32,041 bases of DNA, taken from contig QHSR01000018.1 of the NCBI GenBank assembly GCA_003221635.1, positions 26,096-58,136 on the forward strand, read 5' to 3'. Shown piece after piece: positions 11,519 through 27,306 of the stretch. A program made the translations under genes and the position numbers. Positions within the stretch are counted from its first letter, which is position 1; each line of letters starts with the position of its first letter. Below the pieces are notes generated by a model. The model worked only from the letters and a program-made list of their open reading frames with translations. It was not told the origin of the DNA and searched no databases. The stretch comes from Candidatus Rokuibacteriota bacterium (lineage in GTDB: Bacteria > Methylomirabilota > Methylomirabilia > Rokubacteriales > CSP1-6).

Positions 11519-12730
11519 ATGACCATCGCACGCATCGTGGCGCTCATCGGCATCGTGAGCCTGGCCGCGAGCCCGGCCCGCGCCCAGATCTCCGACGGCG
11601 TCGTCAAGATCGGGGTGCTCAACGACCAGTCGAGCCTCTACGCCGACCTGGCTGGCCAGGGCTCGGTGGTCGCGGCGCGCATGGCCGTCGAGGACTTCGG
11701 CGCCGCCGCCAAGGGGCTGAAGGTCGAGATCGTGTTCGCCGATCACCAGAACAAGGCCGACGTCGGCTCGCAGATCGCCCGCCAGTGGTACGACGCCGAG
11801 AAGGTCGACCTGATCCTCGACGTGCCCAACTCCGGCGTCGCGCTCGCCGTCAACCAGATCACCCGTGACAAGGGCAAAGCGTTCATCGTCTCCTCGGCGG
11901 CGACGTCCGATCTGACCGGCAAGGCGTGCTCCCCCAACACGATCCACTGGACGTACGACACGTGGGCGCTCGCGAACGGCACCGGCACGGCGGTCGTGAA
12001 GACCGGCGGCGACACCTGGTTCTTCATCACCGCCGACTACGCGTTCGGCCACGCGCTCGAGCGCGACGTCGAGGCGGTCGTGCTCAAGAACGGTGGCAAG
12101 GTGCTGGGCAAGGTCCGCCACCCGCTCAACACCCAAGACTTCTCGTCGTTCCTGCTCCAGGCGCAGGCCTCGAAGGCCAAGGTCATCGGCCTGGCCAACG
12201 CCGGCGGCGACACCACGAACGCCATCAAACAGGGCGCCGAATTCGGCATCGTGAAGGGAGGCCAGAGCTTCGCCGGACTCCTGGTCTTCCTGACCGACAT
12301 CCACGCGCTCGGCCTGGAGAAGGCGCAAGGCCTCACCTTCACCGAGACGTTCTACTGGGACATGAACGAGAAGACGCGCGCGTTCGCCAAGCGTTTCGCC
12401 GAGCGCAATCGTCAGATCCATCCGACGATGATCCACGCCGGCGTCTACGCGGGGACGCTCCACTACCTCAAGGCCGTCGAGGCGCTCAAGAGCGACGAGG
12501 GCGCCAAGGTGATCGCCAAGATGAAGGAGCTGCCGACCGACGACCCGCTCTTCGGCAAGGGGACGATCCGCGTCGACGGCCGCAAGATCCATCCGGCGTA
12601 CCTCGTCGAGGTGAAGAAGCCGGCCGAGTCGAAGTACCCGTGGGACTACTACAAGATCCGCGCGACCATCCCGGCCGAGCAAGCGTTCCGGCCCCTGGAT
12701 CAGGGTGGCTGCGAGCTAGTGAAGAAGTAG
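11519..12730 (+). CDS. livK: HAAT-type substrate-binding protein LivK (set 1)
   Basis: This 403-residue periplasmic protein is of the Peripla_BP_6 family. The signal peptide is MTIARIVALIGIVSLAASPARA, cleaved before QISDG. The mature part begins VVKIGVLNDQSSLYADLAGQGS, the usual solute-pocket entrance, followed by ADHQNKADVGSQIARQWYD, VDLILDVPNSGVALAV and the second-domain start WFFITADYAFGHALERD. AAAGGAG at 11503-11509 precedes ATG 11519 by 9 bases. This subgroup (ABC transporter permease operons with crotonases) is found with aromatic or acyl-acid import, but the ligand cannot be read directly. A structured repeat element begins right at its stop codon. Confidence 0.93.
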   Translation: MTIARIVALIGIVSLAASPARAQISDGVVKIGVLNDQSSLYADLAGQGSVVAARMAVEDFGAAAKGLKVEIVFADHQNKADVGSQIARQWYDAEKVDLILDVPNSGVALAVNQITRDKGKAFIVSSAATSDLTGKACSPNTIHWTYDTWALANGTGTAVVKTGGDTWFFITADYAFGHALERDVEAVVLKNGGKVLGKVRHPLNTQDFSSFLLQAQASKAKVIGLANAGGDTTNAIKQGAEFGIVKGGQSFAGLLVFLTDIHALGLEKAQGLTFTETFYWDMNEKTRAFAKRFAERNRQIHPTMIHAGVYAGTLHYLKAVEALKSDEGAKVIAKMKELPTDDPLFGKGTIRVDGRKIHPAYLVEVKKPAESKYPWDYYKIRATIPAEQAFRPLDQGGCELVKK

Positions 12731-12911
12731 CCGCCGCCGCGGCCGGGATGGGAGCGGGACGGGAGAGGGGTGCGACGACCACGCGGCACGCGCGCGCATC
12801 GCCCGGCGCGGCTGGGCTCCATCCGGACGCGCCTCGCTCGCCGCGCGCATGGAGGGAACGGGTCGCTGCACCCCGCTCCCGTCCCGCTCCCATCCCGGCC
12901 GCGGCGGCGGC
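12730..12911 (+). repeat. Conserved-loop/variable-arm element, copy A (livK-livH junction)
   Basis: Arms 12730-12773 and 12868-12911 are reverse complements in 43 of 44 positions. Between them lies the conserved loop: box 1 (12778-12797, one base off ACCACGCGGCACGCGTGCGC), a 10-base spacer, box 2 (from 12808, GCGGCTGGGCTCCATCCGG), a variable stretch, and box 3 (12851-12864, GGAGGGAACGGGTC). The element starts on the last base of livK and ends 11 bases before livH. As RNA it would form a very stable hairpin directly after the binding-protein message. Confidence 0.92.
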
Positions 12912-12921
12912 GTAGCCGGGC

Positions 12922-13806
12922 ATGACAATTTTCGGGGTGCCGACGCAGGCGCTGTTCGGCCAGCTGCTGATCGGGCTGATCAACGGCTCGTTCTACGCCC
13001 TGCTGAGCCTGGGGCTCTCCGTCATCTTCGGACTGCTCAACATCATCAACTTCACGCACGGCGCCCAGTACATGACGGGCGCGTTCGTTGCGTACTTTCT
13101 CCTGCAGTGGGCGGGGCTCGGCTACTGGTGGGCGCTGCTCATCGCGCCGGTTGTCGTGGGGATCACCGGGATGGTGCTCGAGCGCACGACGCTCAAGCGC
13201 CTCTATCAGCTCGACCACCTGTACGGTCTCTTGCTGACGTTCGGCTTCGCCCTGATCATCCAGGGCCTGTTCCGACACGAGTACGGCTCTTCGGGGCTGC
13301 CGTACGCGATGCCGGGCGCGCTCGCCGGCGGCCGGAACCTCGGCTTCATGTTCCTGCCCAACTACCGGGCCTGGGTCATCGTGTTCTCGCTGGCGGTCTG
13401 CCTCACGACCTGGTACGTGATCGAACGCACGCGCCTCGGCTCGTACCTGCGGGCCGCGACCGAGAACCCAACGCTCGTCCAGGCGTTCGGGATCAACGTG
13501 CCGCGGATGATCACGCTGACCTACGGGTTCGGCGTCGGCCTGGCGGCGCTGGCCGGCGTGTTGGCGGCGCCGATCTACCAGGTGAACCCGCTCATGGGCG
13601 CGGACCTCATCATCGTCGTCTTCGCCGTGGTCGTGATCGGCGGCCTCGGCTCGATCATGGGCTCGATCGTCACCGGCTTCGGTCTCGGGGTGGTGGAGGG
13701 TTTCACGAAGGTCTTCTATCCCGAGGCGTCCAACACGGTGATCTTCGTCATCATGGCGATCGTGCTGCTGGTGAGGCCCACCGGCCTCTTCGGGCGAGCC
13801 TCGTGA
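12922..13806 (+). CDS. livH: HAAT ABC transporter permease LivH (set 1)
   Basis: This 294-residue inner-membrane permease has about eight hydrophobic segments. The N-terminal family block LLIGLINGSFYALLSLGLSVIFGLLNIINFTHG (about 14-46) is intact. The middle block LDHLYGLLLTFGFALIIQG is the equivalent of the segment missing from livH2. The cytoplasmic loop is LRAATENPTLVQAFGINV, and VFAVVVIGGLGSIMGSI and LLVRPTGLFGR close the protein. ATG 12922 lies 10 bases beyond the repeat element. The stop overlaps the livM start (GTGA). Confidence 0.94.
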   Translation: MTIFGVPTQALFGQLLIGLINGSFYALLSLGLSVIFGLLNIINFTHGAQYMTGAFVAYFLLQWAGLGYWWALLIAPVVVGITGMVLERTTLKRLYQLDHLYGLLLTFGFALIIQGLFRHEYGSSGLPYAMPGALAGGRNLGFMFLPNYRAWVIVFSLAVCLTTWYVIERTRLGSYLRAATENPTLVQAFGINVPRMITLTYGFGVGLAALAGVLAAPIYQVNPLMGADLIIVVFAVVVIGGLGSIMGSIVTGFGLGVVEGFTKVFYPEASNTVIFVIMAIVLLVRPTGLFGRAS

Positions 13807-14780
13807 CGGCGACGACCGACCAGTACGTCGGCGCGGCCGTGCCCGTGGTGACCGGGGTGTCGATCGCACAAGTCATCGCCTTCCTGATGATGACGATCGC
13901 CCTCGTGGCGGCGCCGTTCTTCGTCTATCCGATCTTCCTCATGAAGGCGCTGTGCTTCGCCCTGTTCGCCTGCGCGTTCAACCTCCTCATCGGCTATGTC
14001 GGGCTCCTATCCTTCGGCCACGCCGTCTTTCTCGGCTCGGCCGGCTACGGGGCGGCGCACTCCGCGAAAGTCTGGGGGTTCCCGCCGGAGCTGGCGATCC
14101 TCTTCGGGACCGCGGTCGCGGCCGCACTCGGCGTCGTGATCGGCGCGCTGGCGATCCGGAGCAAGGGCATCTACTTCGCGAACATCACGCTGGCGTTCGC
14201 GCAGATGGTCTACTTCTTCAGCGTGCAGGCCGCGTTCACCGGCGGCGAGGACGGTATCCAGTCCGTGCCGCGCGGAACCCTTCTGGGGGTGCTGGACCTG
14301 CGAGAGACGCTGACGCTGTACTTCGTCGTGCTCGCGATCTTTCTCCTCGGGTTTCTCCTGATCTACCGCGCGATCCACTCGCCGTTCGGTCAAATCCTGA
14401 AAGCCGTCCGGGAGAACGAGCCGCGGGCGATCTCGCTCGGGTACCGCGCCGAGCACTACAAGCTCCTCGCGTTCGTGCTCTCGGCGACGTTCGCGGGCCT
14501 CGCGGGGGCGACCAAGGCCCTCGTCTTCCAGCTCGCCTCCCTCACCGACGTCCACTGGACGATGTCCGGCGAAGTGGTGCTCATGACGCTCCTGGGCGGA
14601 CTCGGCACGGTGTTCGGGCCGGTGGTCGGTGCGTTCATCGTGGTGACGCTGGAGAACTATCTGGCGCAGCTCGGGGCGTGGGTCACCGTCGTCCAGGGCG
14701 TGATCTTCGTCGTCTGCGTGCTGACCTTCCGTCGCGGCGTCATCGGCGAGGTCGGAAACCTCCTGCGAAAATCGCTCTAG
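13803..14780 (+). CDS. livM: HAAT ABC transporter permease LivM (set 1)
   Basis: This is a 325-residue membrane permease. It has the LivM block LFACAFNLLIGYVGLLSFGHAVFLGSAGYG (about residues 58-87), then ALAIRSKGIYFANITLAFAQMVYF and the EAA-like loop LKAVRENEPRAISLGYRAEHYKLLAFVLSATFAGLAG. The C-terminal part is MTLLGGLGTVFGPVVGAFIVV. GTG 13803 overlaps the livH stop by four bases. The open frame upstream of this point is shadow sequence through the repeat and livH. A MenB/BadI-like enzyme follows after 15 bases with its own ribosome site. Confidence 0.93.
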   Translation: MTATTDQYVGAAVPVVTGVSIAQVIAFLMMTIALVAAPFFVYPIFLMKALCFALFACAFNLLIGYVGLLSFGHAVFLGSAGYGAAHSAKVWGFPPELAILFGTAVAAALGVVIGALAIRSKGIYFANITLAFAQMVYFFSVQAAFTGGEDGIQSVPRGTLLGVLDLRETLTLYFVVLAIFLLGFLLIYRAIHSPFGQILKAVRENEPRAISLGYRAEHYKLLAFVLSATFAGLAGATKALVFQLASLTDVHWTMSGEVVLMTLLGGLGTVFGPVVGAFIVVTLENYLAQLGAWVTVVQGVIFVVCVLTFRRGVIGEVGNLLRKSL

Positions 14781-14795
14781 CCGTCGGAGGCCCCC

Positions 14796-15611
14796 ATGGC
14801 GTACACGGACATCCTCTACGACAAGAAGAACGGCGTCGCCTGGATCACGATCAACCGGCCCGAGGTGCGCAACGCCTTCCGCACGACGACGGTGGCGGAG
14901 CTGACCGACGCGTTCCTGGACGCGCGCTGGGACCCCGCCGTCGGCGTCGTGGTGCTCACCGGCGCCGGGGACAAGGCCTTCTGCTCCGGCGGGGACCAGA
15001 AGGAGCGGGGCCAGGGCGGCTACGCCCCGGGCGCCGAAGGTGCCGGAGCCGCGAGCCGACCCTTCAATCGCCCGATGGACGTCGAGGCTCTGCACAGCGC
15101 GATCCGCCACATCCCGAAGCCGGTCATCGCGATGGTCAACGGCTTCGCGATCGGCGGCGGCCACGTGCTGCACGTCCTCTGCGATCTCTCGATCGCCTCC
15201 GAGAACGCCGTCTTCGGCCAGACCGGGCCCCGCGTCGGCAGCGTGGACGCGGGCCACGGCACCGGGTTCCTCGCCAGGGTCGTCGGCGAGAAGAGGGCGC
15301 GGGAGATCTGGTACCTCTGCCGCCAGTACTCGGCGCGCGAAGCCCTCGAGATGGGGCTCGTCAACCGGGTGGTCCCGCTCCGCGACCTGCGCGCCGAGGT
15401 GGAGAAGTGGTGCGCCGAGCTCCTCGACAAGAGCCCGACGGCGCTCGCGCTCGCCAAGCAGTCCTTCAACGTCGACTCCGAGCAGCGGGCCGGCGTGGCG
15501 CAGTTCGCCCACACCGCGCTCGGCCTCTACTACCAGACGGAAGAAGCGATGGAGGGCCGAAACGCGTTCGTCGAGAAACGGCCGGTCGACTTCAAGAGGT
15601 TTCGGAAATGA
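14796..15611 (+). CDS. MenB/BadI-family crotonase (ring-forming or ring-opening acyl-CoA enzyme)
   Basis: This 271-residue enzyme is clearly in the 1,4-dihydroxy-2-naphthoyl-CoA synthase (MenB) branch of crotonases. It has RPEVRNAFR (22-29), [17 protein letters not shown] (60-76), [32 protein letters not shown] (118-149) and [13 protein letters not shown]. Several positions recall BadI, the 2-ketocyclohexanecarboxyl-CoA hydrolase of Rhodopseudomonas: [19 protein letters not shown] and [13 protein letters not shown]. No other menaquinone gene is near, and it sits in a transporter operon, so a catabolic ring-cleaving hydrolase acting on an imported alicyclic acid is favoured by inference. MenB cannot be excluded. 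ATG 14796 has GGAGG five bases upstream. Confidence 0.82.
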
Positions 15612-15748
15612 CAAAAGGTCCTTCGGAGACTGTCACCTGTCGTCAGGCTGACACCCCGGTGGCCAGGGCGCGACGCCGGCACTTCCTTTAGTTTCAAGGC
15701 TCTCCACCCCATCTCCCACCTGGCAGGGCGATTGCCCCCGGGAGGGAC
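15612..15748. other. Intergenic stretch after the MenB/BadI-like gene
   Basis: No gene is seen. An imperfect hairpin (TGTCACCTG / CAGGCTGACA, about 15632-15654) could end transcription of the preceding operon, but it lacks a U-tract. Confidence 0.3.
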
Positions 15749-15988
15749 ATGACTGGGCGAGGCCTCTGCTCCTTTGCGGGGACTCCGCTTGTGCTTGCGC
15801 TGGCGGCTGCCCTCGCGCTGGCCACGGTGGTGACGAGCGGCGAGAACATCCCGCACGTTCGCCCTGCGGTCCTGGTCGGCGACGACTTGCTGCGCGTCTT
15901 CCAGGAAGGCAAGGACGCGGCCGAGCAGGTGGATCCGCCGGAGATCAGTCTCGGGCCCGCGTTCGACCCGCAACAAGACTCCCGATAG
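15749..15988 (+). CDS. Small putative exported protein, unknown function
   Basis: This is a 79-residue open frame. An N-terminal hydrophobic segment (residues 12-29, PLVLALAAALALATVV) looks like a signal peptide or membrane anchor, followed by a hydrophilic tail rich in Asp, Glu and Pro. GGGAGGG just before ATG 15749 could act as a ribosome site, though the spacing (about 3 bases) is short. It stands alone between two operons. I do not recognise a family, and it may not be expressed; the opposite strand is also open here, as is common in GC-rich DNA. Confidence 0.4.
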   Translation: MTGRGLCSFAGTPLVLALAAALALATVVTSGENIPHVRPAVLVGDDLLRVFQEGKDAAEQVDPPEISLGPAFDPQQDSR

Positions 15989-16103
15989 CTCTCCGCTCGA
16001 TGTAAACGCCGGCGCAGCCTTCGTGGTCTACTTCTGTTTGCCCGTGATCGAGGCCGTGACGAAGTAGGGCGTTCCGTAAGTCCTCGTTATTTTGAGCAAT
16101 TTC
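15989..16103. other. Lower-GC upstream region with a small inverted repeat
   Basis: This stretch precedes the promoter at 16104. CTACTTC (16028-16034) and GAAGTAG (16061-16067) form a 7-base inverted repeat with CCGTGA repeated between them, a possible operator. The area is clearly less GC-rich than the genes around it. No gene could be supported in it. Confidence 0.35.
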
Positions 16104-16133
16104 TTGACACAGCCACCAGGCTTTAGCTAGACT
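16104..16133 (+). promoter_or_regulatory. Sigma-70-like promoter for the ligase/Liv operon
   Basis: TTGACA (16104-16109, perfect -35) is followed after 18 bases by TAGACT (16128-16133; 4 of 6 to TATAAT), with GCTAGACT around it. It lies about 57 bases upstream of the ligase start at 16190, in the least GC-rich part of the region and facing the long co-directional run of genes. It is the only convincing promoter I see in the window. Confidence 0.6.
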
Positions 16134-16180
16134 CTCGCCACTGTAGCTCTCTGCCCGCCCTTGTGGCAGCAACTCGTCCC

Positions 16181-16188
16181 GGAGGTGA
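16181..16188 (+). promoter_or_regulatory. Strong anti-SD match deciding the TTG start of ligase 1
   Basis: GGAGGTGA followed by TT matches the 16S rRNA 3' end almost completely. It lies just before TTG 16190, whereas the alternative GTG 16163 has no ribosome site. Confidence 0.6.
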
Positions 16189-16189
16189 T

Positions 16190-18160
16190 TTGGACACGGT
16201 CGCGAGGAGCACCGACGCTCTGGCGCTCGACCCCGAGCGCGACACGTTCCCGAAGCTCGTTCGGGAGAACGCGCGGCGCCTCGGGAGCAAGGTCGCCATC
16301 CGGGAAAAGGATTTCGGGATCTGGCAGCCGTACACGTGGTCTCAGTACTTCGAGCAAGCGCGTCTCATCGCGCTCGGCCTGGCCTCCCTCGGCTTCGCGC
16401 GCGGCGACCGCGTCGCCATCGTCGGCGACAACCGGCCCCAGCTCTACTGGGCGGTCATGGCGGCCCAGGCGCTGGGGGGCGTCCCGGTGCCGATCTACCA
16501 GGACTCCATCGAGAAGGAGATGGAGTACATCATCGAGCACGCCGAGGCCCGCTTCGCCGTCGTCGAGGACCAGGAGCAGGTGGACAAGCTCCTGGCGGTG
16601 CGGGCGCGCTGCCGGCACCTGCAGCACGTGGTCTACGACGATCCGCGGGGCATGCGCGCCTACAGCGAGCCGGGCCTCGTGAGCCTGGCCGAGCTCGCCG
16701 AGATCGGGAAGAAGTTCGAGGTGCGCCATCCCACCCACTTCGACGACGAGGTCGCCCGGGGCGCGGCGGACGACGTCGCCATCATCTGCTACACCTCGGG
16801 CACGACCGGCGCGCCGAAGGGCGCCATGCTGTCGCACCGGAACCTGATCGTGACCGCGCGCAACGCGGCGCGCTTCGAGGGGCTCCGCGAGGACGAGGAA
16901 GTCCTGTCGTACCTGCCGATGGCGTGGGTCGGCGACCACGTCTTCTCCTACGCGCAGGCCATCGTCGCGGGGTTCGCCATCAACTGTCCCGAGAGCGCCG
17001 CGACCGTTCTCGCCGACCTGAAGGAGATCGCGCCGACCTACTTCTTCGGGCCGCCGCGCATCTGGGAGAGCATCCTGACCGGGGTCATGCTCCGCGTCGA
17101 GGACGCAGCGCGACCGAAGCGCGCGACGGTCCATTTCTTCCTGCGCCTGGCCCAGAACATCGAGCGCAAGCGTCTGGGCCGGCAGCCGGTCCCGCTCTGG
17201 CAGCGGCTCTTGTATCCACTGGGGAGCCTCCTCGTGTACGGCCCGCTGAAGGACAATCTCGGCTTCTCGCGCGTCCGCCGGGCCTACACCGCCGGCGAGG
17301 CCATCGGCCCGGAGATCTTCCTCTTCTTCCGCGGGCTGGGCGTCAACGTCAAGCAGCTTTACGGCATGACCGAGGCCAGCGTGTTCGTCACCATCCAGCG
17401 CGACGGCGACGTGCGACTGGACACCGTGGGCACGCCGATCCCCGACGTCGCGATCCGCATCTCGCCCGAGGGGGAAGTGCTCTTCCGGAGCCCCGGGGTC
17501 TTCCAGGGCTACGCGAAGGACCCGGAAGCCACGCGACAGACCGTCGAGGACGGCTGGATCCGCTCGGGAGACGCCGGCTTCGTCGACCACGACGGCCACC
17601 TGAAGATCATCGATCGGGCGAAGGATGTGAGCCACCTGGCCGACGGGACCGTGTTCGCCCCCAAGTTCCTCGAGAACAAGCTCAAGTTCTCCCCGTATGT
17701 CCGCGAGGCTGTCTGCATCGGACAGGGGCGACCCTGCGTCACCGCGCTGGTCAACATCGATCTCGCGGCCGTCGGGAACTGGGCGGAGCGCCGCAACATT
17801 GCATACACGAGCTACACCGATCTGGCCCAGAAGGCGGAGGTCTACGAGCTGATCCAGGCAGAGGTGAAGCGCGTGAACCGGAGCCTCGCCGAGGACGAGA
17901 TCCTGCGCGGGGCCCAGGTCCGGCGATTCCTGATCCTCCACAAGGAGCTGGATCCGGACGACGAGGAGATCACGCGGACGCGCAAGGTGCGGCGCGGGTA
18001 CATCGCGCAGAAGTACGCGCCGCTCATCGAGGCGCTCTACTCCGGGCAGGACCGTGTCCAGGTCGAGGCGAAGGTGACCTACGAGGACGGGCGCACCGGC
18101 ACCATGCGCGCGGACGTGCGGATCCGCGACGTCGACGTGGTGGCGGCGGCGGCGCGGTGA
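16190..18160 (+). CDS. AMP-forming long-chain-type acyl-CoA synthetase (ligase 1)
   Basis: This 656-residue ANL-superfamily ligase makes acyl-CoA from a carboxylic acid, ATP and CoA. N-terminal LC-FACS features are REKDFGIWQPYTW and GDNRPQLYWAVMAAQALGGVPVPIYQDS. The P-loop ICYTSGTTGAPKGAMLSH lies near residues 199-215, then PPRIWE, the adenine motif YGMTEAS near 391, GWIRSGDAGFVDHDGHLKIIDRAKD and the C-terminal TRTRKVRRGYIAQKY with the family lysine region near 596. Its length and insertions match fatty-acid-type (FadD15-like) enzymes. TTG 16190 is chosen for its strong ribosome site. It heads the operon and overlaps livG2 by GTGA, so it probably activates the imported acid. Confidence 0.93.
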   Translation: MDTVARSTDALALDPERDTFPKLVRENARRLGSKVAIREKDFGIWQPYTWSQYFEQARLIALGLASLGFARGDRVAIVGDNRPQLYWAVMAAQALGGVPVPIYQDSIEKEMEYIIEHAEARFAVVEDQEQVDKLLAVRARCRHLQHVVYDDPRGMRAYSEPGLVSLAELAEIGKKFEVRHPTHFDDEVARGAADDVAIICYTSGTTGAPKGAMLSHRNLIVTARNAARFEGLREDEEVLSYLPMAWVGDHVFSYAQAIVAGFAINCPESAATVLADLKEIAPTYFFGPPRIWESILTGVMLRVEDAARPKRATVHFFLRLAQNIERKRLGRQPVPLWQRLLYPLGSLLVYGPLKDNLGFSRVRRAYTAGEAIGPEIFLFFRGLGVNVKQLYGMTEASVFVTIQRDGDVRLDTVGTPIPDVAIRISPEGEVLFRSPGVFQGYAKDPEATRQTVEDGWIRSGDAGFVDHDGHLKIIDRAKDVSHLADGTVFAPKFLENKLKFSPYVREAVCIGQGRPCVTALVNIDLAAVGNWAERRNIAYTSYTDLAQKAEVYELIQAEVKRVNRSLAEDEILRGAQVRRFLILHKELDPDDEEITRTRKVRRGYIAQKYAPLIEALYSGQDRVQVEAKVTYEDGRTGTMRADVRIRDVDVVAAAAR

Positions 18161-19056: not shown

Positions 19057-19930
19057 ATGCTGGAGCTTCTGCATGCCGTTCTGGTGGCGCCGTTCAAGGA
19101 CATGGCCGGCTCGCCTGCCTTTCTGGTGGAGGTGCTGATCGGCGGCATCTTCGCGGGCCTCATGTACTCGCTGGTCGCGCTCGGCTTCGTGCTCATCTTC
19201 AAGGCCTCGGGCGTCTTCAACTTCGCCCAGGGCGTGATGGTGCTGTTCGCGGCCCTCACGCTCGTCGGCCTGCTCGAGCGCGGCGCGCCGGTCGTCGTGG
19301 CCCTCGTCCTGACGAGCGTCGTGATGGTGGCGCTGGCGTTCGCGATCGAGCGGGTCGTGCTGCGACCCCTGGTCAACCAGGAACACATGCGCCAACGTCA
19401 AGAAGCTCGACATCGGAATTCCCGACCGCTCGTTCATCGTCCACGGCGTCCAGATCAACGAGCTCGAGCTGACGGCCGCGGTGACGGCCGCGGTGCTCGT
19501 CACGCTGCTGGCGCTGTTCTTCCAGAAAACGCGCATCGGGCGGGCCCTGCGCGCGGTCGCCGACGACCACGAGGCGGCGCTCTCGATCGGCATCCCGCTC
19601 AAGACGATCTGGGTCGTCGTGTGGTCGGTGGCGGGCGTCGTCGCCATCGTCGCCGGGCTGATGTGGGGCGCCAAGAGCGGCGTGCAGTTCAGCCTCTCGC
19701 TCATCGCGCTCAAGGCGCTGCCCGTGCTGATCCTGGGCGGCTTCGAGTCCGTGCCGGGCGCGATCGTGGGCGGGCTCATCATCGGTGTCGGCGAGAAGCT
19801 GGGGGAGGTCTACTGGGGGCCGCTCGTCGGCGGCGCCATCGAGAACTGGTTCGCCTACGTCCTCGCCCTCGCGTTCCTGCTGGTGCGGCCCCAAGGCCTC
19901 TTCGGCGAGAAGATCATCGAGCGCGTGTGA
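19057..19930 (+). pseudogene. livH: LivH-type permease gene (set 2), internal deletion with frameshift
   Basis: The N-terminal third (MLELLHAVLVAPFKD to ERVVLRPLVNQE, 19057-19382) is in one frame. The remainder (NVKKLDIGIPDRSFIVHGV to GLFGEKIIERV, 19393-19930) is in another. Comparison with the intact LivH at 25911-26807 shows that about 25 residues are missing at the join, the segment that there reads VIAVVMATIGLASILRGVG. The loss removes one membrane helix and shifts the frame, so the gene as written cannot make a full permease. Both halves are otherwise well conserved, which suggests a recent event or an assembly fault. Confidence 0.88.
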
Positions 19931-19934
19931 CGCC

Positions 19935-21146
19935 ATGAAAGCCTTCGATCGACGCTGCACACCAGTGACGCCCCACGGGTCGGGGGATGGCGGGGTGGGG
20001 GGTCGCGGGACCACGCGGCACGCGTGCGCAGCACCGCCAGCGGCTGGGCTCCATCCGGGCGCAGTTCCACCGATCTATCGGGAGGCCGGACAGTTCAAAG
20101 CGACGTACGCGCGTGACCAGGCGATCTTCCCGATCGTCCAGGACCGTGTGTTCGTCACGACCGCTGTGGTCGCGGCCTTCGTGGTGCCGCCGCTCGCCGC
20201 CAGCGAGTACTGGCTCCAGGCGGTACTGATCCCGTTCCTGATCTACGCGCTGGCCGCCATCGGGCTCAACTTGTTGACGGGGTACGCCGGACAGCTCTCG
20301 CTCGGCACCGGCGGCTTCATGGCGGTCGGCGCCTACTCGGCGTTCAAGCTGGCGACGGCGTTCCCGCAGCTCAACGTCATCGTCGTCTTCGTGCTCTCGG
20401 GCGTGGTCGCGGCCGCCGTCGGGCTGCTGTTCGGCATCCCGAGCCTCCGCATCAAGGGCTTCTACCTCGCCGTCGCGACCCTCGCCTCGCAGTTCTTCCT
20501 CATCTGGCTCTTCAACAAGGTCGCGTGGTTCACCAACTATGCGTCGTCGGGCACCATCACCGCCCCGGACCGGGCGCTCTTCGGCGCGCTCATCACCGGC
20601 CCGAACTCGACACCGTCGGCGCGGTACCTCACCGCGCTGGGACTGGTCGCCGTGTTCGCCCTCGTCGCCAAGAACCTGGTCCGCGGTCGCGTCGGCCGGT
20701 CCTGGATGGCGATCCGCGACCGCGACATCGCCGCCGAGATCATCGGCGTGCGGCCGCTGCGCACCAAGCTGCTCGCCTTCGGCATCAGCTCGTTCTACTG
20801 CGGGGTGGCCGGGGCCGAGCTGGTGTTCCTCTATCTCGGCAGCGCCGAGACCCTGGCGTTCGACATCGGCATCTCGTTCCTCGTCCTGTTCATGGTGATC
20901 ATCGGCGGCCGGGGCAGCATCCTGGGCTCCTTCCTCGGCGCCGCGTTCATCGTGCTGGTCCCGATCGTCTTGAGCAACGCGCCCCACGCGGTCGGGCTCC
21001 GGCTTCCGGTTGCGCTCCAGAAGCAGATCGAGCTGATGGTCTTCGGCGGATTGATCCTCCTCTTCCTGATCGTCGAGCCGCACGGCCTGGCCCGGCTCTG
21101 GCAGATCACGAAGGAGAAGCTGCGGCTCTGGCCATTCCCCCACTGA
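19935..21146 (+). CDS. livM: HAAT ABC transporter permease LivM (set 2), N-terminus altered by repeat
   Basis: The LivM core runs from about 20076 (YREAGQFKATYARDQAIFP, matching IHRECGVLKTTYEAD of livM3) through IGLNLLTGYAGQLSLGTGGFMAVGAYS, IPSLRIKGFYLAVATLASQF, IRDRDIAAEIIGVRPLRTKLLAFGISSFYCGVAGA and GGRGSILGSFLGAAF to RLWPFPH. The only in-frame ATG/GTG upstream is ATG 19935, which would add about 47 residues encoded by repeat copy B. livM3 starts with GTG at the equivalent of 20073, where here CCG stands. Either the repeat sequence is translated as an odd N-terminal extension, or the true start has been lost with the repeat's right arm. The membrane part itself is intact. Confidence 0.85.
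   Translation: MKAFDRRCTPVTPHGSGDGGVGGRGTTRHACAAPPAAGLHPGAVPPIYREAGQFKATYARDQAIFPIVQDRVFVTTAVVAAFVVPPLAASEYWLQAVLIPFLIYALAAIGLNLLTGYAGQLSLGTGGFMAVGAYSAFKLATAFPQLNVIVVFVLSGVVAAAVGLLFGIPSLRIKGFYLAVATLASQFFLIWLFNKVAWFTNYASSGTITAPDRALFGALITGPNSTPSARYLTALGLVAVFALVAKNLVRGRVGRSWMAIRDRDIAAEIIGVRPLRTKLLAFGISSFYCGVAGAELVFLYLGSAETLAFDIGISFLVLFMVIIGGRGSILGSFLGAAFIVLVPIVLSNAPHAVGLRLPVALQKQIELMVFGGLILLFLIVEPHGLARLWQITKEKLRLWPFPH
19971..20062 (+). repeat. Conserved-loop element, copy B (left half only)
   Basis: A G-rich left arm (19971-20009) is followed by an exact box 1 (20010-20029), a 10-base spacer and an exact box 2 (from 20040). The sequence then passes straight into livM2. Box 3 and the right arm are missing, so no long hairpin can form here. 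It is located at the livH2-livM2 junction, equivalent to copies C-E before livM3. Confidence 0.88.
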
Positions 21147-21166
21147 ACGCGCGAAAGGAGAACGTC

Positions 21167-22480
21167 ATGACGATGCGAACTGTCTCGATCGCGGTGCTGG
21201 CCGCGCTCGCGATCACGGCGCCGATGCTGGCCGCCGCCCAACCGAAAGAGGTGTTCATCCCGCTGCTCGTCTACCGGACCGGCCCGTACGCGCCGAGCGG
21301 TATTCCGATCGCGGACGGCTTCGTCGACTACTTCGCGCTCCTGAACGAGCGCGACGGCGGGATCAACGGCGTCAGGGTCGCGTGGGAGGAGTGCGAGACG
21401 CAGTACGACAACAAGGCGGGCGTCGAGTGCTACGAGCGACTCAAGGGGAAGAGCCCCGTGCTCGTGAATCCCTACAGCACCGCGATCACCTACTCGCTGA
21501 TCCCCAAGGCGCCCGTCGACAGGGTGGTGGTCTTCTCGATGGGGTATGGCATGAGCGCCGCCTCCGACGGCCGGTGGTTCCCGTGGGTGTTCAACTTCCC
21601 GACGAACTACTGGAGCCAGGCGTCGGCGGTCATCCGCTACGTCGGTCAGCAGGAAGGCGGCGTCGAGAAGCTGAAGGGCAAGAAGATCGCCCACATCTTC
21701 CACAACAGCGCCTACGGCAAAGAGGCGAACCCGACGCTCGAGGAGCTCGCGAAGAAGTATCAGTTCGAGCTCACGCTGCTCGCCGTGGACCATCCCGGAC
21801 AGGAACAGAAGGCGACGTGGCTCCAGGTGCGCCGGCTGAATCCGGACTGGATCTTCATGTCGGGCTGGGGCGTCATGAACCAGGTGGCCATCAAGGAAGC
21901 GTCGTCCGTCGGCTTCAAGATGGACCATCTGATCGGCAACTGGTGGTCGGCCAACGACTCCGACGTCGTCCCGGCCGGCGACGGGGCGAAGGGCTACAAG
22001 GGCGCGACGTTCCACGCGCCGGGCAGCGCGTTCAAGGTGCACGCGGAGATCCTCAAGCACGTCTACGACAAGGGGAAGGGCACCGGCAGAAAAGAGGACA
22101 TGGGCGCGCCGCTCTACAACCGCGGCGTCGTCAACGCGATGCTCTCGGCCGAGGCCATCCGCACCGCGATGACGAAGTTCGGCAACAAGCCGCTCACCGG
22201 CGAGCAGGTGCGCTGGGGTTTCGAGAACCTCAACCTGACCGAGCAGCGCCTTGAGCAAGTCGGCATGAAGGGGTTCACGCACCCGGTCAGGGTCACCTGC
22301 GAGGACCACGAGGGCAGCGGCCCCGTGCTCATCCAGCAGTGGGACGGCAAGAAGTGGAATGTCGTCTCCGACTGGATCGCGCCCATGCGCGACGTCGTCC
22401 GGCCGAAGATCGAGACCGCCGCCGTCGACGAAGCCAAGAAGCTCGGCTACACGATGCGCGACTGCGCGAAGGAGAAGTAG
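21167..22480 (+). CDS. livK: HAAT-type substrate-binding protein LivK (set 2)
   Basis: This 437-residue periplasmic binding protein has the signal peptide MTMRTVSIAVLAALAITAPMLAAA, cleaved near AQP. The mature part starts KEVFIPLLVYRTGPYAPSGIPIADGFVDYF. Conserved cysteines in WEECETQYDNKAGVECYERL (about 79-98) mark a Peripla_BP_6 subgroup that travels with acyl-CoA ligases. The middle of the protein has FPTNYWSQASAVIRYVGQQEGG and KIAHIFHNSAYGKE. AAAGGAG (21154-21160) lies 6 bases before ATG 21167. Its ligand is unknown; the paired ligase points to a carboxylic acid. Confidence 0.93.
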   Translation: MTMRTVSIAVLAALAITAPMLAAAQPKEVFIPLLVYRTGPYAPSGIPIADGFVDYFALLNERDGGINGVRVAWEECETQYDNKAGVECYERLKGKSPVLVNPYSTAITYSLIPKAPVDRVVVFSMGYGMSAASDGRWFPWVFNFPTNYWSQASAVIRYVGQQEGGVEKLKGKKIAHIFHNSAYGKEANPTLEELAKKYQFELTLLAVDHPGQEQKATWLQVRRLNPDWIFMSGWGVMNQVAIKEASSVGFKMDHLIGNWWSANDSDVVPAGDGAKGYKGATFHAPGSAFKVHAEILKHVYDKGKGTGRKEDMGAPLYNRGVVNAMLSAEAIRTAMTKFGNKPLTGEQVRWGFENLNLTEQRLEQVGMKGFTHPVRVTCEDHEGSGPVLIQQWDGKKWNVVSDWIAPMRDVVRPKIETAAVDEAKKLGYTMRDCAKEK

Positions 22481-22490
22481 GGGCGCGCCG

Positions 22491-23309
22491 GTGGCGAGCG
22501 CCGCGCCGCGGCCGCTCCTGGCGGTCAGCAACATCGAGGTGATCTACGACCACGTCATCCTCGTGTTGAAGGGCGTGTCGCTCGGGGTTCCCGAGGGGGG
22601 CATCGTCGCCCTCCTCGGGGCCAACGGCGCCGGCAAGTCGACGACGCTCAAGGCGATCTCGGGCCTGCTGCGCACGGAGCGGGGCGAGGTGACCAAAGGC
22701 GCGATCGAGTTCCAGGGCAAGGCGATCCACCGGCAGAACCCGTCCGAGGTGGTGAAGCACGGCATCGTCCAGGTCATGGAAGGCCGGCACGTGTTCGAGC
22801 ACCTGACGGTCGAGGACAATCTCTTGACCGGCGCGTACACGCGCCGCAACGGTCATTCCACCAGGCGCGACCTCGACCGCGTCTACCACTACTTCCCCCG
22901 GCTGGCCGAGCGCCGGGGCTTCAAGGCGGGCTACATCTCCGGGGGCGAGCAGCAGATGGTGGCCATCGGCCGCGCGCTGATGGCGCGCCCGCGGCTGATG
23001 CTCCTCGACGAGCCGTCCATGGGCCTGGCGCCCATGCTCGTGAAGGAGATTTTCGACATCGTCGTGCGCCTCCACCGGGAGGAAGGGGTGGCGGTGCTGC
23101 TCGCCGAGCAGAACGCGACCATGGCCTTGCAGGTTGCCCAGCATGGCTATGTCATGGAGAATGGCCGGATCGTGCTGGACGGCGATGCGAAGACGATCAG
23201 CGAGAACGAGGACATCAAGGAGTTCTATCTGGGCCTGACCAACGTGGGCCAGCGGAAGAGCTATCGCGACGTCAAGCACTACCGCCGACGGAAGCGGTGG
23301 CTGTCGTGA
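22491..23309 (+). CDS. livF: HAAT ABC transporter ATPase LivF (set 2), with basic tail
   Basis: This 272-residue ATPase has Walker A GANGAGKSTTLK, VQVMEGRHVFEHLTVEDNL, the signature ISGGEQQMVAIGRAL, Walker B LMLLDEPSMGLAP and LLAEQNATMAL. After the usual LivF end (KEFYLGL) it carries a tail of about 20 residues, SYRDVKHYRRRKRWLS, nearly identical to that of LivF3. GTG 22491 is 10 bases past the livK2 stop. The stop overlaps livG3 by GTGA. Confidence 0.93.
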   Translation: MASAAPRPLLAVSNIEVIYDHVILVLKGVSLGVPEGGIVALLGANGAGKSTTLKAISGLLRTERGEVTKGAIEFQGKAIHRQNPSEVVKHGIVQVMEGRHVFEHLTVEDNLLTGAYTRRNGHSTRRDLDRVYHYFPRLAERRGFKAGYISGGEQQMVAIGRALMARPRLMLLDEPSMGLAPMLVKEIFDIVVRLHREEGVAVLLAEQNATMALQVAQHGYVMENGRIVLDGDAKTISENEDIKEFYLGLTNVGQRKSYRDVKHYRRRKRWLS

Positions 23310-24009
23310 GCGCGCTTCTGGAGATCCGCGAGACGTCCAAGGCGTTCGGCGGCGTGCAGGCCGTGACGCGGGTGTCGCTCGAGGCCCAGACGGGATCGCG
23401 CTCGAAGGTCGCGACGTCACCGACCTGGCGCCGAGCCGGATCGCCGAGCTCGGCATCGCGCGCACCTTCCAGAACATCGCCTTGTTCCGAGGCATGACCG
23501 TGCTCGACAACCTCATGCTCGGTCGCCATGTGCACATGAAGACCGGTGTCCTGGGCGCCTTTGCCTACTGGGGGTTCGCGCAGAAGGAGGAGGTCGAGCA
23601 CCGAAAGCGCGTCGAGGACATCATCGACTTTCTGCGCATCCAGGATCTCCGCCGGCGGCCGACCGGATCGCTCGCCTACGGGCTGCAGAAGCGCGTCGAG
23701 CTCGGCCGCGCGCTGGCGCTGGACCCGAAGATCCTCCTCCTCGACGAGCCGATGGGCGGGTGCAACCACGAGGAGAAGGAGGACATGGCCCGCTTCGTCC
23801 TCGACGTCAACGAGGAATGGGGCGTCACCGTGATCCTGATCGAGCACGATATGGGCGTGGTCATGGACATCTCCGACCGGGTCGCCGTCCTCGACATGGG
23901 CCAGAAGATCGCCGAAGGCACGCCCGACGAGGTGCGGGCCAATCCACGGGTGATCAAGGCGTACCTCGGTGAGACGAAGACCATCGCCACCGGAGGGTCC
24001 CGTGGCTGA
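23306..24009 (+). pseudogene. livG: LivG-type ATPase gene (set 3), Walker A deleted and frameshifted
   Basis: The start (VSALLEIRETSKAFGGVQAVTRVSLEA, from GTG 23306) and the remainder (GIALEGRDVTDLAPSRIAELGIARTFQNIALFRG to the stop at 24009) lie in different frames joined near 23390. Aligned with LivG2, about 30-35 residues are absent, precisely the strand and P-loop GEIVAIIGPNGAGKTTLLN. The signature LAYGLQKRVELGRAL, Walker B ILLLDEPMGGCN and the switch His are present. Without the P-loop the protein could not bind ATP, even if a frameshift were bypassed. The GTGA overlap with livF2 and the 8-base overlap with ligase 2 show it belongs to the operon. Confidence 0.88.
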
Positions 24010-25918
24010 GACCACGCTCGCGAGACTGCTGCAGAGGAACGCCCGCGACCGTCGCGACCGGCCCGCGATCCGCGAGAAGGACCGCGGCATCTGGCAAACC
24101 TGGACGTGGAGCCAGTACCACGATGAGGTCCGCGCTTTCGCGCTCGGGCTCGCCGCCCTCGGGTTCAAGCGCGGCGAGCGGCTGTCGGTCATCGGCGACA
24201 ACCGTCCCCGCCTCTACTGGGCGCAGGTCGCCGCCCAGTGCCTGGGCGGCGTGCCGGTGCCCGTCTACCAGGATTCGATCGCGAAGGAGCTCGCCTTCGT
24301 CTGGAATCACGCCGAGTGCTCGGTGATCGTCGCCGAGGACCAGGAACAGATCGACAAGGTGCTGACCCTCCGGGACCAGCTCCCGGCCCTCCGCCTCGTC
24401 GTCTACGACGATCCGCGCGGCATGCTGCAGTACAAGCACGACTGGCTCCGCTCCTATCAGGCCGTCCAGGAGCTCGGGCGCAAGTTCGCGGCCGAGCACC
24501 CCGGCTACTTCGAGGCCGAGGTCGAGAAGGGGAAGCCGGAGGATGTCGCCAGTATCTGCTACACCTCCGGCACCACCGGCAGCCCGAAGGGCGTCATGCT
24601 GACGCACGCCAACGCGATCGCCATCGCGGACGCCTTCCGCAAGGCCGACGACGTCCGGCCGGAGGACGACGCTCTCGCCTACCTGCCGATGGCGTGGGCG
24701 GGCGACGCCGCCTACACCTTGTTTCTCAGCCTCGTGGTGGGCTTCTGCGCCAACTGCCCGGAGAGCCCGGAGACGGTCCAGCGCGACCTGCGCGAGCTGG
24801 GGCCGACGACCGTGCTGGCGCCGCCCCGCATCTGGGAGAACATGCTGACGGCGGTGCAGGTGAAGGCCGCCGACGCGCCCGCCCTCAAGCGGTGGGTCTT
24901 CGAGCGCTTCCGGGCCGCCGCCGAGCGGGCGGAGATCCTTCGCGCCGACGGCAAGCCGATTCCCGTCGGACTGCGGCTGGCGTGCATGATCGGTGACGTG
25001 CTCGTCTACACGCCGATCCGTGATCAGCTCGGCCTGCGCCGCGCCAAGTGGGCGCTCACGGGCGGGGCGCCCCTCGGGCCGGACACGTTTCGCTTCTTCC
25101 GGTCGATCGGCGTCAACCTCAAGCAGGTCTACGGCTCCACGGAGACGACGGGCCTGGTGTCGCTGCAGCCGAGCGCTGAAGCCAATCCGACGACCGCCGG
25201 CCGGCCCTGCCCGGGCATCGAGGTCAAGATCGCCGAGCGCGGAGAAGTGCTGGTCCGGGGTCCCGTCATCTTCAAGGGCTATCTCAAGAACGAAGAGGCC
25301 ACGCGCGAGGTCATCGATCCGGACGGCTGGTTCCACACCGGCGATGCGGGCTTCATGGATCCGCGCGGCCATCTCGTCATCATCGACCGCGTCAAGGATG
25401 TCGGTGCCCTCCAGGACGGTACCCCGTTCGCGCCGCAGTTCATCGAGAACAAGCTGAAGTACAGCCCCTTCGTCCGCGAGGCGGTGGCCTTCGGCCACGA
25501 GCGCGCCTTCGTCACCGCCATGATCGCCATCGACCTCAACACGGTGGGGAACTGGGCCGAGCGGCGCGGGATTCCTTACACGAGCTACATGGACCTGAGC
25601 CAGAAGCCCGAGGTGTGCGAGCTGATCCGCGAGGAGATCCGGAAGGGCAACGAGACGCTGCCGGAGTCCACGCGGATCCGGCGCTTCCTGCTGCTCACCA
25701 AGGATCTGGAGGCCGACGACGCCGAGATGACGCGCACCCGCAAGGTGCGGCGCCGCTTCGTGGCCGAAAAATACGCCTCGGTCGTCGACGCGTTCTACTC
25801 CGGCGGCCACGCGGTGGAGCTGGCGGCGACCATCACCTACGAGGACGGCCGCCAGGCCACCATGAAGTCGCGCGTGCGCGTGGAGGACGTCGAGGCGACG
25901 GTGGTGGCGCGTGTCTGA
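24002..25918 (+). CDS. AMP-forming long-chain-type acyl-CoA synthetase (ligase 2)
   Basis: This 638-residue ligase is a paralogue of ligase 1 (shared phrases IREKDRGIWQTWTWSQY, GDNRPRLYWAQ, GGVPVPVYQDS and VVYDDPRGM). The P-loop ICYTSGTTGSPKGVMLTH lies near 184-201, APPRIWENML follows, the adenine motif YGSTETTG is near 377, GWFHTGDAGFMDPRGHLVIIDRVKD comes next, and TRTRKVRRRFVAEKY is near 578. GTG 24002 has GGAGG five bases upstream and overlaps the broken livG3 by 8 bases. It overlaps livH3 by 8 bases at its end. It should activate the substrate of transporter set 3. Differences around the YGSTET pocket suggest another acid than ligase 1, by inference. Confidence 0.93.
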   Translation: MAETTLARLLQRNARDRRDRPAIREKDRGIWQTWTWSQYHDEVRAFALGLAALGFKRGERLSVIGDNRPRLYWAQVAAQCLGGVPVPVYQDSIAKELAFVWNHAECSVIVAEDQEQIDKVLTLRDQLPALRLVVYDDPRGMLQYKHDWLRSYQAVQELGRKFAAEHPGYFEAEVEKGKPEDVASICYTSGTTGSPKGVMLTHANAIAIADAFRKADDVRPEDDALAYLPMAWAGDAAYTLFLSLVVGFCANCPESPETVQRDLRELGPTTVLAPPRIWENMLTAVQVKAADAPALKRWVFERFRAAAERAEILRADGKPIPVGLRLACMIGDVLVYTPIRDQLGLRRAKWALTGGAPLGPDTFRFFRSIGVNLKQVYGSTETTGLVSLQPSAEANPTTAGRPCPGIEVKIAERGEVLVRGPVIFKGYLKNEEATREVIDPDGWFHTGDAGFMDPRGHLVIIDRVKDVGALQDGTPFAPQFIENKLKYSPFVREAVAFGHERAFVTAMIAIDLNTVGNWAERRGIPYTSYMDLSQKPEVCELIREEIRKGNETLPESTRIRRFLLLTKDLEADDAEMTRTRKVRRRFVAEKYASVVDAFYSGGHAVELAATITYEDGRQATMKSRVRVEDVEATVVARV

Positions 25919-26807
25919 CGACCTCAGCTTCTTCTTTCTCCTGATGTCGAACGGCCTGCTGATCGGCCTGATGTATTCGCTGATCGCGCTCGGGTTCGTG
26001 CTCGTCTACAAGGCGACCGACGCCATCAACTTCGCCCAGGGCGAGTTCGTCATGATCGCGGGTTTCGTGGCGGCCGGCTGTCTCATGGTCTGGGGGGCGC
26101 CGCTCTGGTTGGCCGTCACGCTCGCGGTGGCGAGTCTGGTGGTATTCGGCTTCGTCCTCGAGCGCGTCATGCTGCGCCGGCTCATCGGCCGACCCGTGAT
26201 CGCCGTGGTCATGGCGACCATCGGGTTGGCGTCGATCCTGCGCGGCGTCGGGCCGTTCACCATCTTCTCCGGGACCAAGCCGCTGCCGCTGCCCATCCGC
26301 GACGAGCCGTTCATGCTGGGCCCGCTCTTCATCCCGCCCATCCAGCTCCTGGGCGCCGGCGTGAGCCTGACCTTCCTGGCCGGCTTCGGCTGGTTCTTCT
26401 TGAAGTCGCGCAAGGGCATCGCCATGCGGGCGGTCGCCGACAACCAGCAGGTCGCGATGGCCATGGGCATCGACGTCGAGCGCTACTTCGGCGTGGCGTG
26501 GGCGATGACGGGCGTGGTCTCGGCGCTCGGCGGCATCCTCTGGGGGAACCTCCTCGGCGTCGACGTGAACCTGGCCCTGGTCGGCTTCAAGGTGTTCCCG
26601 GTCGTGATCCTGGGCGGGCTCGACTCCATCCCCGGCGCGATCCTGGGCGGTCTCATCGTCGGCGTCGTCGAGAACATCGCGGCCGGCTACGTCAATCCCT
26701 ACGTCGGCGGCGGCACCAAGGACTTTGCCCCCTACGTCCTCATGATCCTCGCGCTCATGATTCGCCCGTACGGCATCTTCGGCAAACGCATCATCGAGCG
26801 CGTATGA
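25911..26807 (+). CDS. livH: HAAT ABC transporter permease LivH (set 3)
   Basis: This 298-residue membrane permease is intact. N-terminal LLIGLMYSLIALGFVLVYKATDAINFAQGEFVMIAG is followed by VIAVVMATIGLASILRGVGPF (the helix missing in livH2), MRAVADNQQVAMAMGIDVERYFGVAWAMTGVVSALGG and VVILGGLDSIPGAILGGLIVGVVENIAAGY. It ends IRPYGIFGKRIIERV, like livH2. The GTG start at 25911 overlaps the ligase 2 stop by 8 bases. Nearly 500 bases of repeats separate it from livM3. Confidence 0.94.
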   Translation: MSDDLSFFFLLMSNGLLIGLMYSLIALGFVLVYKATDAINFAQGEFVMIAGFVAAGCLMVWGAPLWLAVTLAVASLVVFGFVLERVMLRRLIGRPVIAVVMATIGLASILRGVGPFTIFSGTKPLPLPIRDEPFMLGPLFIPPIQLLGAGVSLTFLAGFGWFFLKSRKGIAMRAVADNQQVAMAMGIDVERYFGVAWAMTGVVSALGGILWGNLLGVDVNLALVGFKVFPVVILGGLDSIPGAILGGLIVGVVENIAAGYVNPYVGGGTKDFAPYVLMILALMIRPYGIFGKRIIERV

Positions 26808-26818
26808 AGTCTCTTACC

Positions 26819-26988
26819 GGGCTCGGGGCGGAGGGGCGGGGTGGGGGGAGGGGGGCTGGGACCACGCGGCACGCGTGCGCATTTCCGGGCGCGGCTGGGC
26901 TCCATCCGGGCGCGGCGCGTCCGCAAACGACTCGGAGGGAACGGGTCCCAGCCCCCCTCCCCCCACCCCGCCCCTCCGCCCCGAGCCC
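26819..26988 (+). repeat. Conserved-loop/variable-arm element, copy C
   Basis: Arms 26819-26863 and 26944-26988 are perfect reverse complements (45 of 45). The loop holds exact box 1 (26861-26880, overlapping the arm by its ACC), a 10-base spacer, box 2 (from 26891) and box 3 (26934-26947, whose GGTC pairs with the GACC of box 1). The left arm contains several runs of four to six G on the plus strand, able to form a G-quadruplex. Confidence 0.95.
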
Positions 26989-27129
26989 TCGCGCGACTCG
27001 CAGAGAACCGGAACGGGTCCCAGCACCCCTCTCCCCACGCCGCCCCCATGCCCTGAGCCCTCCCTCTGCGTGCAGAGAACTCGTGTCAGCACCCTTCATG
27101 CGTGGGTACTCATGCGCGGTCGCCGAGTG
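26989..27129 (+). repeat. Degenerate 72-bp tandem units related to the element's right half (D)
   Basis: The segment AACGGGTCCCAGC plus its C-rich continuation (26940-26990) recurs with about 80% identity 72 bases later (27012-27062). CAGAGAAC at 27001 recurs at 27073, again 72 bases on. These look like decayed right halves of the element with no left arms. Nothing coding is supported. Confidence 0.7.
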
Positions 27130-27289
27130 GAGCCCGCGGGGGTGGGGTGGGGTGGGGGGTGGCGAGACCCGTTCCCGCCACGCGAGCGGCGGAGCGAGAG
27201 CGCCCGGATGGAGCCCAGCCGCAACGGGGAACGCGCACGCGTGCCGCGTGGTCGCGCCACCCCCCACCCCACCCCGCCCCCGCGGGCTC
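27130..27289 (-). repeat. Conserved-loop/variable-arm element, copy E (inverted)
   Basis: Arms 27130-27164 and 27255-27289 are reverse complements in 34 of 35 positions. The loop reads on the minus strand, with exact box 1 at 27252-27233, a 10-base spacer, box 2 at 27222-27200 and box 3 at 27179-27166. It lies just before livM3, 18 bases ahead of its GTG start, and opposite in direction to copies A-C. Confidence 0.93.
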
Positions 27290-27306
27290 GACGCGTGGAG
27301 CAGGGC

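What the first reader, a model, noticed from the sequence alone, without database searches (positions are those of the whole stretch)
12730..27289. Unrecognised repeat family: conserved ~80-nt loop inside long hairpins at Liv gene junctions
Four copies (12730-12911, 19971-20062, 26819-26988, 27130-27289 inverted) share box 1 ACCACGCGGCACGCGTGCGC, an exact 10-base variable spacer, box 2 GCGGCTGGGCTCCATCCGGG, and in the three full copies box 3 GGAGGGAACGGGTC or close to it. All lie between genes of Liv-type operons and would be transcribed. REP, BOX, Correia and MITE elements normally conserve the ends; this one conserves the loop. I know no family of this shape. It may be an RNA processing or stability element, a protein-binding site or a non-autonomous mobile element.
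Basis: partly seen in the sequence, partly recalled or inferred. Interest (0 to 1): 0.88.

Follow-up and report, generated by a model that had tools for sequence, protein, structure and literature searches.

The report
Hairpin repeats with conserved tips
Soil bacteria called Rokubacteria carry dozens of short repeats just after the ends of genes, in which the tip of a long hairpin is conserved while the two arms differ from site to site yet still match each other closely, the reverse of the usual repeat design.

Summary
The window's four copies belong to a dispersed family (F1): 168 distinct copies were held here, about 50 in the own genome; it is present in all 9 held genomes of the genus and patchy in the family. 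All 80 listed GTDB stretches (of 86 with an exact hit) are Rokubacteria records. There was no Rfam match. A tip of about 80-90 nt is conserved. The 20-60 bp arms mostly differ between sites but are about 95% Watson-Crick paired within a copy. At least three more loop families (F2-F4) share the design, and three sites hold different families in different species. The hairpins stand at gene 3' ends (median 12 nt after a stop codon; convergent 37, divergent 9), mostly beside genes other than Liv. Between species the arms change together (260 mirrored substitutions, 95 mirrored indel columns, 130 one-sided differences), transversions lead, and G-U pairs are no commoner than A-C mismatches. This points to copying of one arm from the other by replication template switching more than to RNA-level selection. 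Y1/RAYT transposases were not found in the genus, and T-tracts are missing. What spreads the loops is unknown. A new variant of short palindromic repeat, probably mobile.

The parts
12730..12911 (+). F1 copy 1: arms 12730-12780 and 12861-12911 around the 80-nt conserved tip 12781-12860; begins at the last base of the stop codon of the gene ending at 12730
   Evidence: F1 stands at the same junction in 7 of 8 other genomes of the genus (G001's copy is 3'-truncated); the eighth (G005) gave no junction row
19971..20067 (+). F1 copy 2, 3'-truncated: left arm plus box 1 and box 2 (20012-20058), no right arm or box 3
   Evidence: at the same junction G001, G004, G005 and G006 have no element (G006 a 31-nt stretch), G002, G003 and G007 carry F2, G008 inverted F1
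26819..26988 (+). F1 copy 3: perfect 45-bp arms 26819-26863/26944-26988 around an 80-nt tip
26990..27062 (+). decayed right half of another F1 copy (box 3-like CCGGAACGGGTC followed by a C-rich arm)
   Evidence: read by eye; G008 has a second full + copy at this junction
27124..27295 (-). F1 copy 4, inverted: arms 27124-27169/27250-27295 (91%) around an 80-nt tip

Best explanation
These are short, non-autonomous hairpin elements of Rokubacteria at gene 3' ends. The element proper is the tip: about 80-90 nt plus a short inner stem GGGGTCG.../...CGACCCC. The long outer arms belong to the site. Shown: the tip is conserved and dispersed; outer arms are mostly site-specific; the arms of orthologous copies change together, indels included; tips 96% identical can carry unrelated but self-matching outer arms; truncated tips can still carry long mirror arms. 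Inferred: the arms are made and kept matching by DNA-polymerase template switching, in which a nascent strand folds back on the inner stem and copies the opposite arm, sometimes running on into neighbouring DNA. Inferred with less support: tips spread to new sites, or into palindromes already present, through an unidentified trans-acting enzyme or template jumps between hairpins. At gene ends the hairpins are tolerated, and may serve as symmetric 3'-end structures for the flanking transcripts.
For: Dispersed family. Arms: 138 of 168 copies have an arm score of at least 18; in them 4974 of 5236 positions are Watson-Crick, 56 G-U, 111 A-C, 95 other (the arms were defined as the best-matching stretch, which favours pairing). 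In the transcription sense of 94 codirectional copies, G-U 61 and A-C 55. Orthologous copies: 41 same-orientation pairs gave 260 mirrored substitutions (158 transversions, 102 transitions), 95 mirrored indel columns, 130 one-sided and 11 complex columns. For comparison, Monttinen & Loytynoja (PMC8794818, abstract and passages) report 61.0% transition-type changes among instantaneous compensatory changes in RNA stems; here it is 39%. Passages of PMC8604942 say that template switching homogenises arms and inverts spacers, and that published bacterial data favoured transversions. Unit versus arms: L020 and L030 share a 166-nt unit at 93%, while L024 shares only the inner 128 nt with L020 (96%) and has different, closely paired outer arms; in L020, L030, L047 and L034 the paired arm runs, read by eye, about 9-23 nt past the shared unit into unique sequence. 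Mirror derivatives: three copies with truncated loops keep 23-43 nt arms, and in one (L231 12177-12282) the mirror includes the element's own inner arm. Loop exchange: the junction at 19930-20148 holds F1+, F1-, F2 or no element in different species, with related outer arms in most comparisons; a second site holds F1 in both orientations and F3 in both orientations.
Against: No recent insertion with a matching pre-insertion site was found, so neither arm creation nor insertion was caught in the act. The 41 pairs come from few sites and species and are not independent, and G-rich arms align ambiguously. Selection may also rebuild arms. In the loop's own orientation A-C exceeds G-U (111 to 56), a strand effect that simple symmetric template switching does not predict. 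Only 11 of a first set of 59 copies had faultless arms, and the mismatched bulge of the inner stem has not been homogenised. Arms at the second multi-family site differ between families. The automatic test for F3 copies at G000 F1 sites found 1 of 27, the very site that had led to F3.
Confidence: 0.55

Rival explanations
1. An RNA element at the 3' end of messages (terminator, stabiliser or processing site) whose arms are kept paired by ordinary compensatory selection.
For: Hairpins stand right after stop codons (median 12 nt, n=87) and avoid divergent gene pairs, 37 convergent to 9 divergent. Orientation bias with codirectional genes: F1 70 to 41, F3 15 to 3. The F3 tip is an irregular hairpin with conserved bulges and covariation near its apex, 32 sequences.
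Against: In the transcription sense G-U 61 and A-C 55, so no tolerance of G-U. Mirrored changes are mostly transversions. At least 5 T in the 8 nt after the foot occurs on 1 of 276 sides. Opposite loop orientations occur at one orthologous site.
Confidence: 0.25
2. A classical non-autonomous transposon: an unknown transposase inserts the tip into the centre of palindromes that already stand after genes.
For: Paired arms extend past the shared unit. Truncated tips sit inside long mirror arms. At one site related outer arms surround different loops.
Against: Long palindromes without such a loop, the supposed targets, were scarce: of 23 long hairpins in 800 kb, 20 carried F1, F3 or F4 loops (the contigs sampled were ones already known to bear copies). 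Y1_Tnp was found in 0 of 9 genomes of the genus. No recurrent gene family that looked like a mobile enzyme stood beside own-genome copies, judged by eye. In one truncated copy the mirror includes the element's own inner arm.
Confidence: 0.2
3. Assembly artefact: false palindromes made by chimeric reads or assemblers.
For: These are multi-contig draft assemblies. An N-run (G005) and contig ends (G006) fall at these hairpins, and two palindromes inside coding sequence look artefactual (window 4663-4851; L219 1093-1168).
Against: Orthologous hairpins stand at the same sites in different genomes with diverged arms, and the conserved tip occurs in many GTDB records.
Confidence: 0.02

Closest known systems
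REP/BIME elements with RAYT (Y1 tyrosine) transposases
   Same: Short palindromic repeats between genes, tens of copies, both orientations
   Different: REPs are described as 20-40 bp palindromes (PMC3733652, abstract opening in the search listing). Here the tip is conserved, arms are mostly 20-60 bp and site-specific, and Y1_Tnp was not found in any of 9 genomes of the genus
Small bacterial MITE-like elements: Correia/NEMIS, ERIC, RUP, Rickettsia palindromic elements (review PMC2229807: abstract and section list only)
   Same: Short intergenic repeats regarded as non-autonomous mobile elements
   Different: In those families conserved ends or stems define the element (recalled, not tested here); here outer arms share no clear sequence between most copies
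Template-switch-maintained hairpins (PMC8794818, abstract and passages; PMC8604942, passages)
   Same: Arm homogenisation, mirrored multi-base changes, loop inversion
   Different: Described there for stems of RNA genes and for yeast coding sequence, not for a dispersed repeat family with conserved tips
Mitochondrial hairpin elements (double-hairpin elements; sponge repetitive hairpin-forming elements, PMC2800124)
   Same: Hairpin repeats in intergenic DNA, regarded as mobile (search listing only; rest recalled)
   Different: Found in organelles; their anatomy was not compared here

Membership tests
REP/RAYT | Y1 (RAYT) transposase in genomes carrying the repeat | tested here: not met
   PF01797: 0 matches in 9 of 9 genomes of the genus (own assembly 88.8% complete); 23 of the 59 genomes searched have it
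REP/RAYT | conserved short palindrome with tagged ends | tested here: not met
   arms differ between copies, the tip is conserved; no specific GTAG/CGTC search was made
MITE | terminal inverted repeats shared between copies | tested here: not met
   outer arms are mostly site-specific, though one subgroup shares about 42 nt; the inner stem is partly shared
MITE | target-site duplication | tested here: inconclusive
   empty sites are too diverged to place the ends
Intrinsic terminator | G+C-rich hairpin followed by a T run | tested here: not met
   hairpin yes; at least 5 T in the next 8 nt on 1 of 276 sides of 138 copies
Any Rfam family | score above the family's gathering threshold | tested here: not met
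   0 matches in the window; in a permissive scan of 6 F1/F3 loci 11 weak matches, none reaching a gathering score; F2 and F4 loci were not scanned
Template-switch-homogenised inverted repeat | both arms change together in several bases, without a G-U step | tested here: met
   260 mirrored substitutions and 95 mirrored indel columns against 130 one-sided differences in 41 non-independent pairs; 158 transversions to 102 transitions; G-U not above A-C
Template-switch-homogenised inverted repeat | inversion of the spacer between unchanged arms | tested here: inconclusive
   opposite loop orientations occur at orthologous sites, but the arms differ too; most of the 38 flipped pairs are only the two inverted copies of the 26819-27295 junction

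The most novel reading that the evidence does not exclude
The tips are enzyme-free selfish replicators. Long G-rich hairpins stall replication, and the nascent strand jumps to another hairpin through short G-run matches, copies its tip, folds back and rebuilds matching arms from the DNA at the new site. Tips thus hop from palindrome to palindrome, several loop families compete for the same gene-end sites, and no transposase is needed.
Probability: 0.17. Interest if true: 0.88.

Novelty: new variant of a known kind. Interest (0 to 1): 0.66.

Why it matters
It inverts the usual anatomy of short bacterial repeats: what is kept is the tip, while the arms seem to be remade at each site. If so, the family is a natural record of template switching in bacteria, with dozens of hairpins per genome and orthologues in several species, and lets one ask directly whether paired stems need selection to stay paired. 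It would also warn that strong covariation of a stem, normally the best evidence for RNA structure, can arise from DNA copying.

Tried and rejected
Liv-operon element: rejected as the defining setting. In 194 predicted proteins around own-genome copies five clusters recur in three or more loci; by eye two are Liv-type ABC genes (5 loci each, several of them the window's own), the others are different. Cluster names are by eye, not from a family search.

RAYT/IS200 mobilisation: not found in this genus.

Known RNA family: none.

Phage origin: no exact F1 match in viral contigs (exact pattern only).

Internal RNA fold of the F1 tip: inconclusive. The strongest covariation is between arm columns; within the tip one column pair (43-70, 65% pairable) ranks fifth. 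The consensus fold has mixed support and is somewhat better on the opposite strand, -85.6 against -78.8. Single-sequence folds of the four window copies gave one z-score of -3.0 and three near 0.

Partner gene beside an element: none recognised by eye in own-genome flanks of about 1.5 kb; a copy with a gene inside its loop was not searched for systematically.

Site sharing as a general rule: only three sites (19930-20148 junction; L129 at about 711 and about 8476) showed different loop families in different species. The automatic test on 27 F3 sites found 1, the site that had led to F3; it would miss sites with tandem copies. At L129 about 711 G007 has neither F1 nor F3, and no rows came for G002-G004. 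At L127 about 9083 F1 is in G000, partial in G001, and absent from G002-G007, with a remnant-like stretch in G008.

Rows dropped: 30 of 168 copies without arms of score 18 left the pair counts; arms from six loci were left out of the background (138 to 125); odd or truncated copies were left out of the alignments.

Literature: searches listed no paper whose title or abstract opening describes these repeats. The library is open-licence PMC only; the four papers were not opened, and one search matched 19,286 papers of which 15 were listed.

Full report
Observation. Three have long arms around an 80-nt loop (51 nt at 94%, 45 nt at 100%, 46 nt at 91%); the second copy (20012-20058) is 3'-truncated. 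The boxes are not chance: box 2 with at most 3 mismatches occurs 62 times in the own genome against 12 for the reversed control, and box 1 72 against 16. BLAST with copy 1 gave 44 matches in the own genome, a few of them the same place on both strands.

Extent. With a 107-nt core, 25 of 59 genomes match, the own genome included; all 9 genomes of the genus have 12 or more matches (at most 15 candidates were scored per genome, so these are lower bounds). Matches elsewhere in the family are patchy, one weak hit appeared in another family of the order, and none in the rest of the class. Viral contigs gave none. Rfam gave none. In all, 168 distinct F1 copies were held; they include orthologues.

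Anatomy. The conserved unit reads GACCACGCGGCACGCG..CGC, a 9-10 nt spacer, GGCTGGGCTCCA..., and GGGAACGGGTC, closed by a short inner stem. Beyond it, 138 of 168 copies have arms of score at least 18, median 38.5 nt, with 95% of 5236 positions Watson-Crick; the other 30 are truncated, decayed or cut. Arms are G-rich on the 5' side, 55% G in a first set of 59 copies, 11 of which were faultless. Outer arms are unrelated between most copies. L020, L030, L047 and L034 share a unit of about 166 nt (87-93%), whereas L024 shares only the inner 128 nt with L020 (96%) and has different outer arms that match each other closely. In these four copies the paired arm runs on past the shared unit into unique sequence.

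Other families. Orthologous junctions revealed F2 (same first and last bases as F1, different middle) and F3 (65-nt tip). In 800 kb (400 kb each of G008 and G000, on contigs that were already known to bear copies, so density is inflated) there were 23 long hairpins: 13 F1, whole or partial, 4 F3, 3 of a fourth family F4 beginning TGTAGTCAGG, and 3 others, one of which adjoins a run of N. F3 matched in 12 of 59 genomes, 3 of them only weakly and perhaps by chance, and not in G000. F2 matched in 8 of 59, several weakly; a G000 copy in L126 seen was missed by that search.

Position. With a simple codon-usage gene caller, the foot of the 5' arm lies a median 12 nt after the stop codon of an upstream same-strand gene (n=87). 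Convergent pairs outnumber divergent 37 to 9, and codirectional copies are 70 sense to 41 antisense (binomial p 4e-5 and 0.008, orthologues included). Own genome only: 21 and 10 codirectional, 14 convergent, 2 divergent, 1 undetermined of 48. F3: 15 sense, 3 antisense, 11 convergent, 1 divergent, 3 undetermined of 33. No T-tract follows the hairpins.

How the arms evolve. Under RNA-level selection G-U pairs should outnumber A-C mismatches in the transcribed strand. They do not: 61 to 55 in 94 codirectional copies. In the loop's own orientation A-C even exceeds G-U, 111 to 56 (p 2.5e-5 if copies were independent), and F3 shows the same trend, 17 to 9 in 26 copies. I read that as a strand effect tied to the element, either a hairpin acting on the opposite strand or strand-biased mutation; it is unexplained. 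In 41 orthologous same-orientation pairs, mirrored changes (260 substitutions, 95 indel columns) exceed one-sided ones (130), and 158 of the 260 are transversions; the pairs are not independent. Template switching is known to homogenise arms and invert spacers (PMC8604942, passages) and to create and maintain stems (PMC8794818, abstract and passages). Three copies with truncated tips still have 23-43 nt mirror arms; in L231 the mirror includes the element's inner arm.

How the tips move. At the 19930-20148 junction G001, G004, G005 and G006 have no element (G006 a 31-nt stretch); G002, G003 and G007 carry F2, G008 inverted F1, G000 a truncated F1. Outer arms of different occupants resemble each other more than background: each score is reached by 0-10% of 125 other arms, except those of the G003 arm with the two F1 arms, 43-53%. 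At L129 near 711 G000 and G001 have F1(-), G005 F1(+), G006 F3(+), G008 F3(-), G007 neither; there the arms differ between families. At L129 near 8476 G000 and G003 have F1 and G008 two F3 copies. So both new insertion at favoured sites and tip exchange inside a resident palindrome remain open. No transposase candidate was found: Y1_Tnp was not detected in the genus, and no recurrent gene beside own-genome copies looked like a mobile enzyme (by eye).

Judgement. The feature is real, not seen in the paper listings searched, and unusual in anatomy. Arm maintenance by template switching is the best-supported mechanism; the means of dispersal is unknown; an added role as a 3'-end structure is plausible and untested.

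Noticed in passing
window 4663-4851: An 89-bp, 99% inverted repeat with an 11-nt gap overlapping the start of an OppB-type permease gene whose first ~46 profile positions are missing; probably an assembly chimera, or a real fold-back duplication.
   Followed up: partly
L219 1093-1168 (G000 C178): A similar 33-bp perfect palindrome with a 10-nt loop inside a predicted gene.
   Followed up: no
L144, L147, L148, L155-L184: Loop family F3: a nearly invariant 65-nt irregular hairpin with covarying apex, mostly oriented with the upstream gene; deserves a study of its own.
   Followed up: partly
L197 13857-14001, L212 8031-8183, L224 8135-8269: Loop family F4, alike mainly in its first ~16 nt (TGTAGTCAGGCTCGTC).
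   Followed up: no
F1 arms in the held genomes: A-C mismatches exceed G-U 111 to 56 relative to loop orientation but not relative to transcription: an unexplained strand asymmetry.
   Followed up: partly
L014/L023 (G000 C290:17454-17587): Two different F1 left halves fused head to head into one palindrome with a mini-loop.
   Followed up: no
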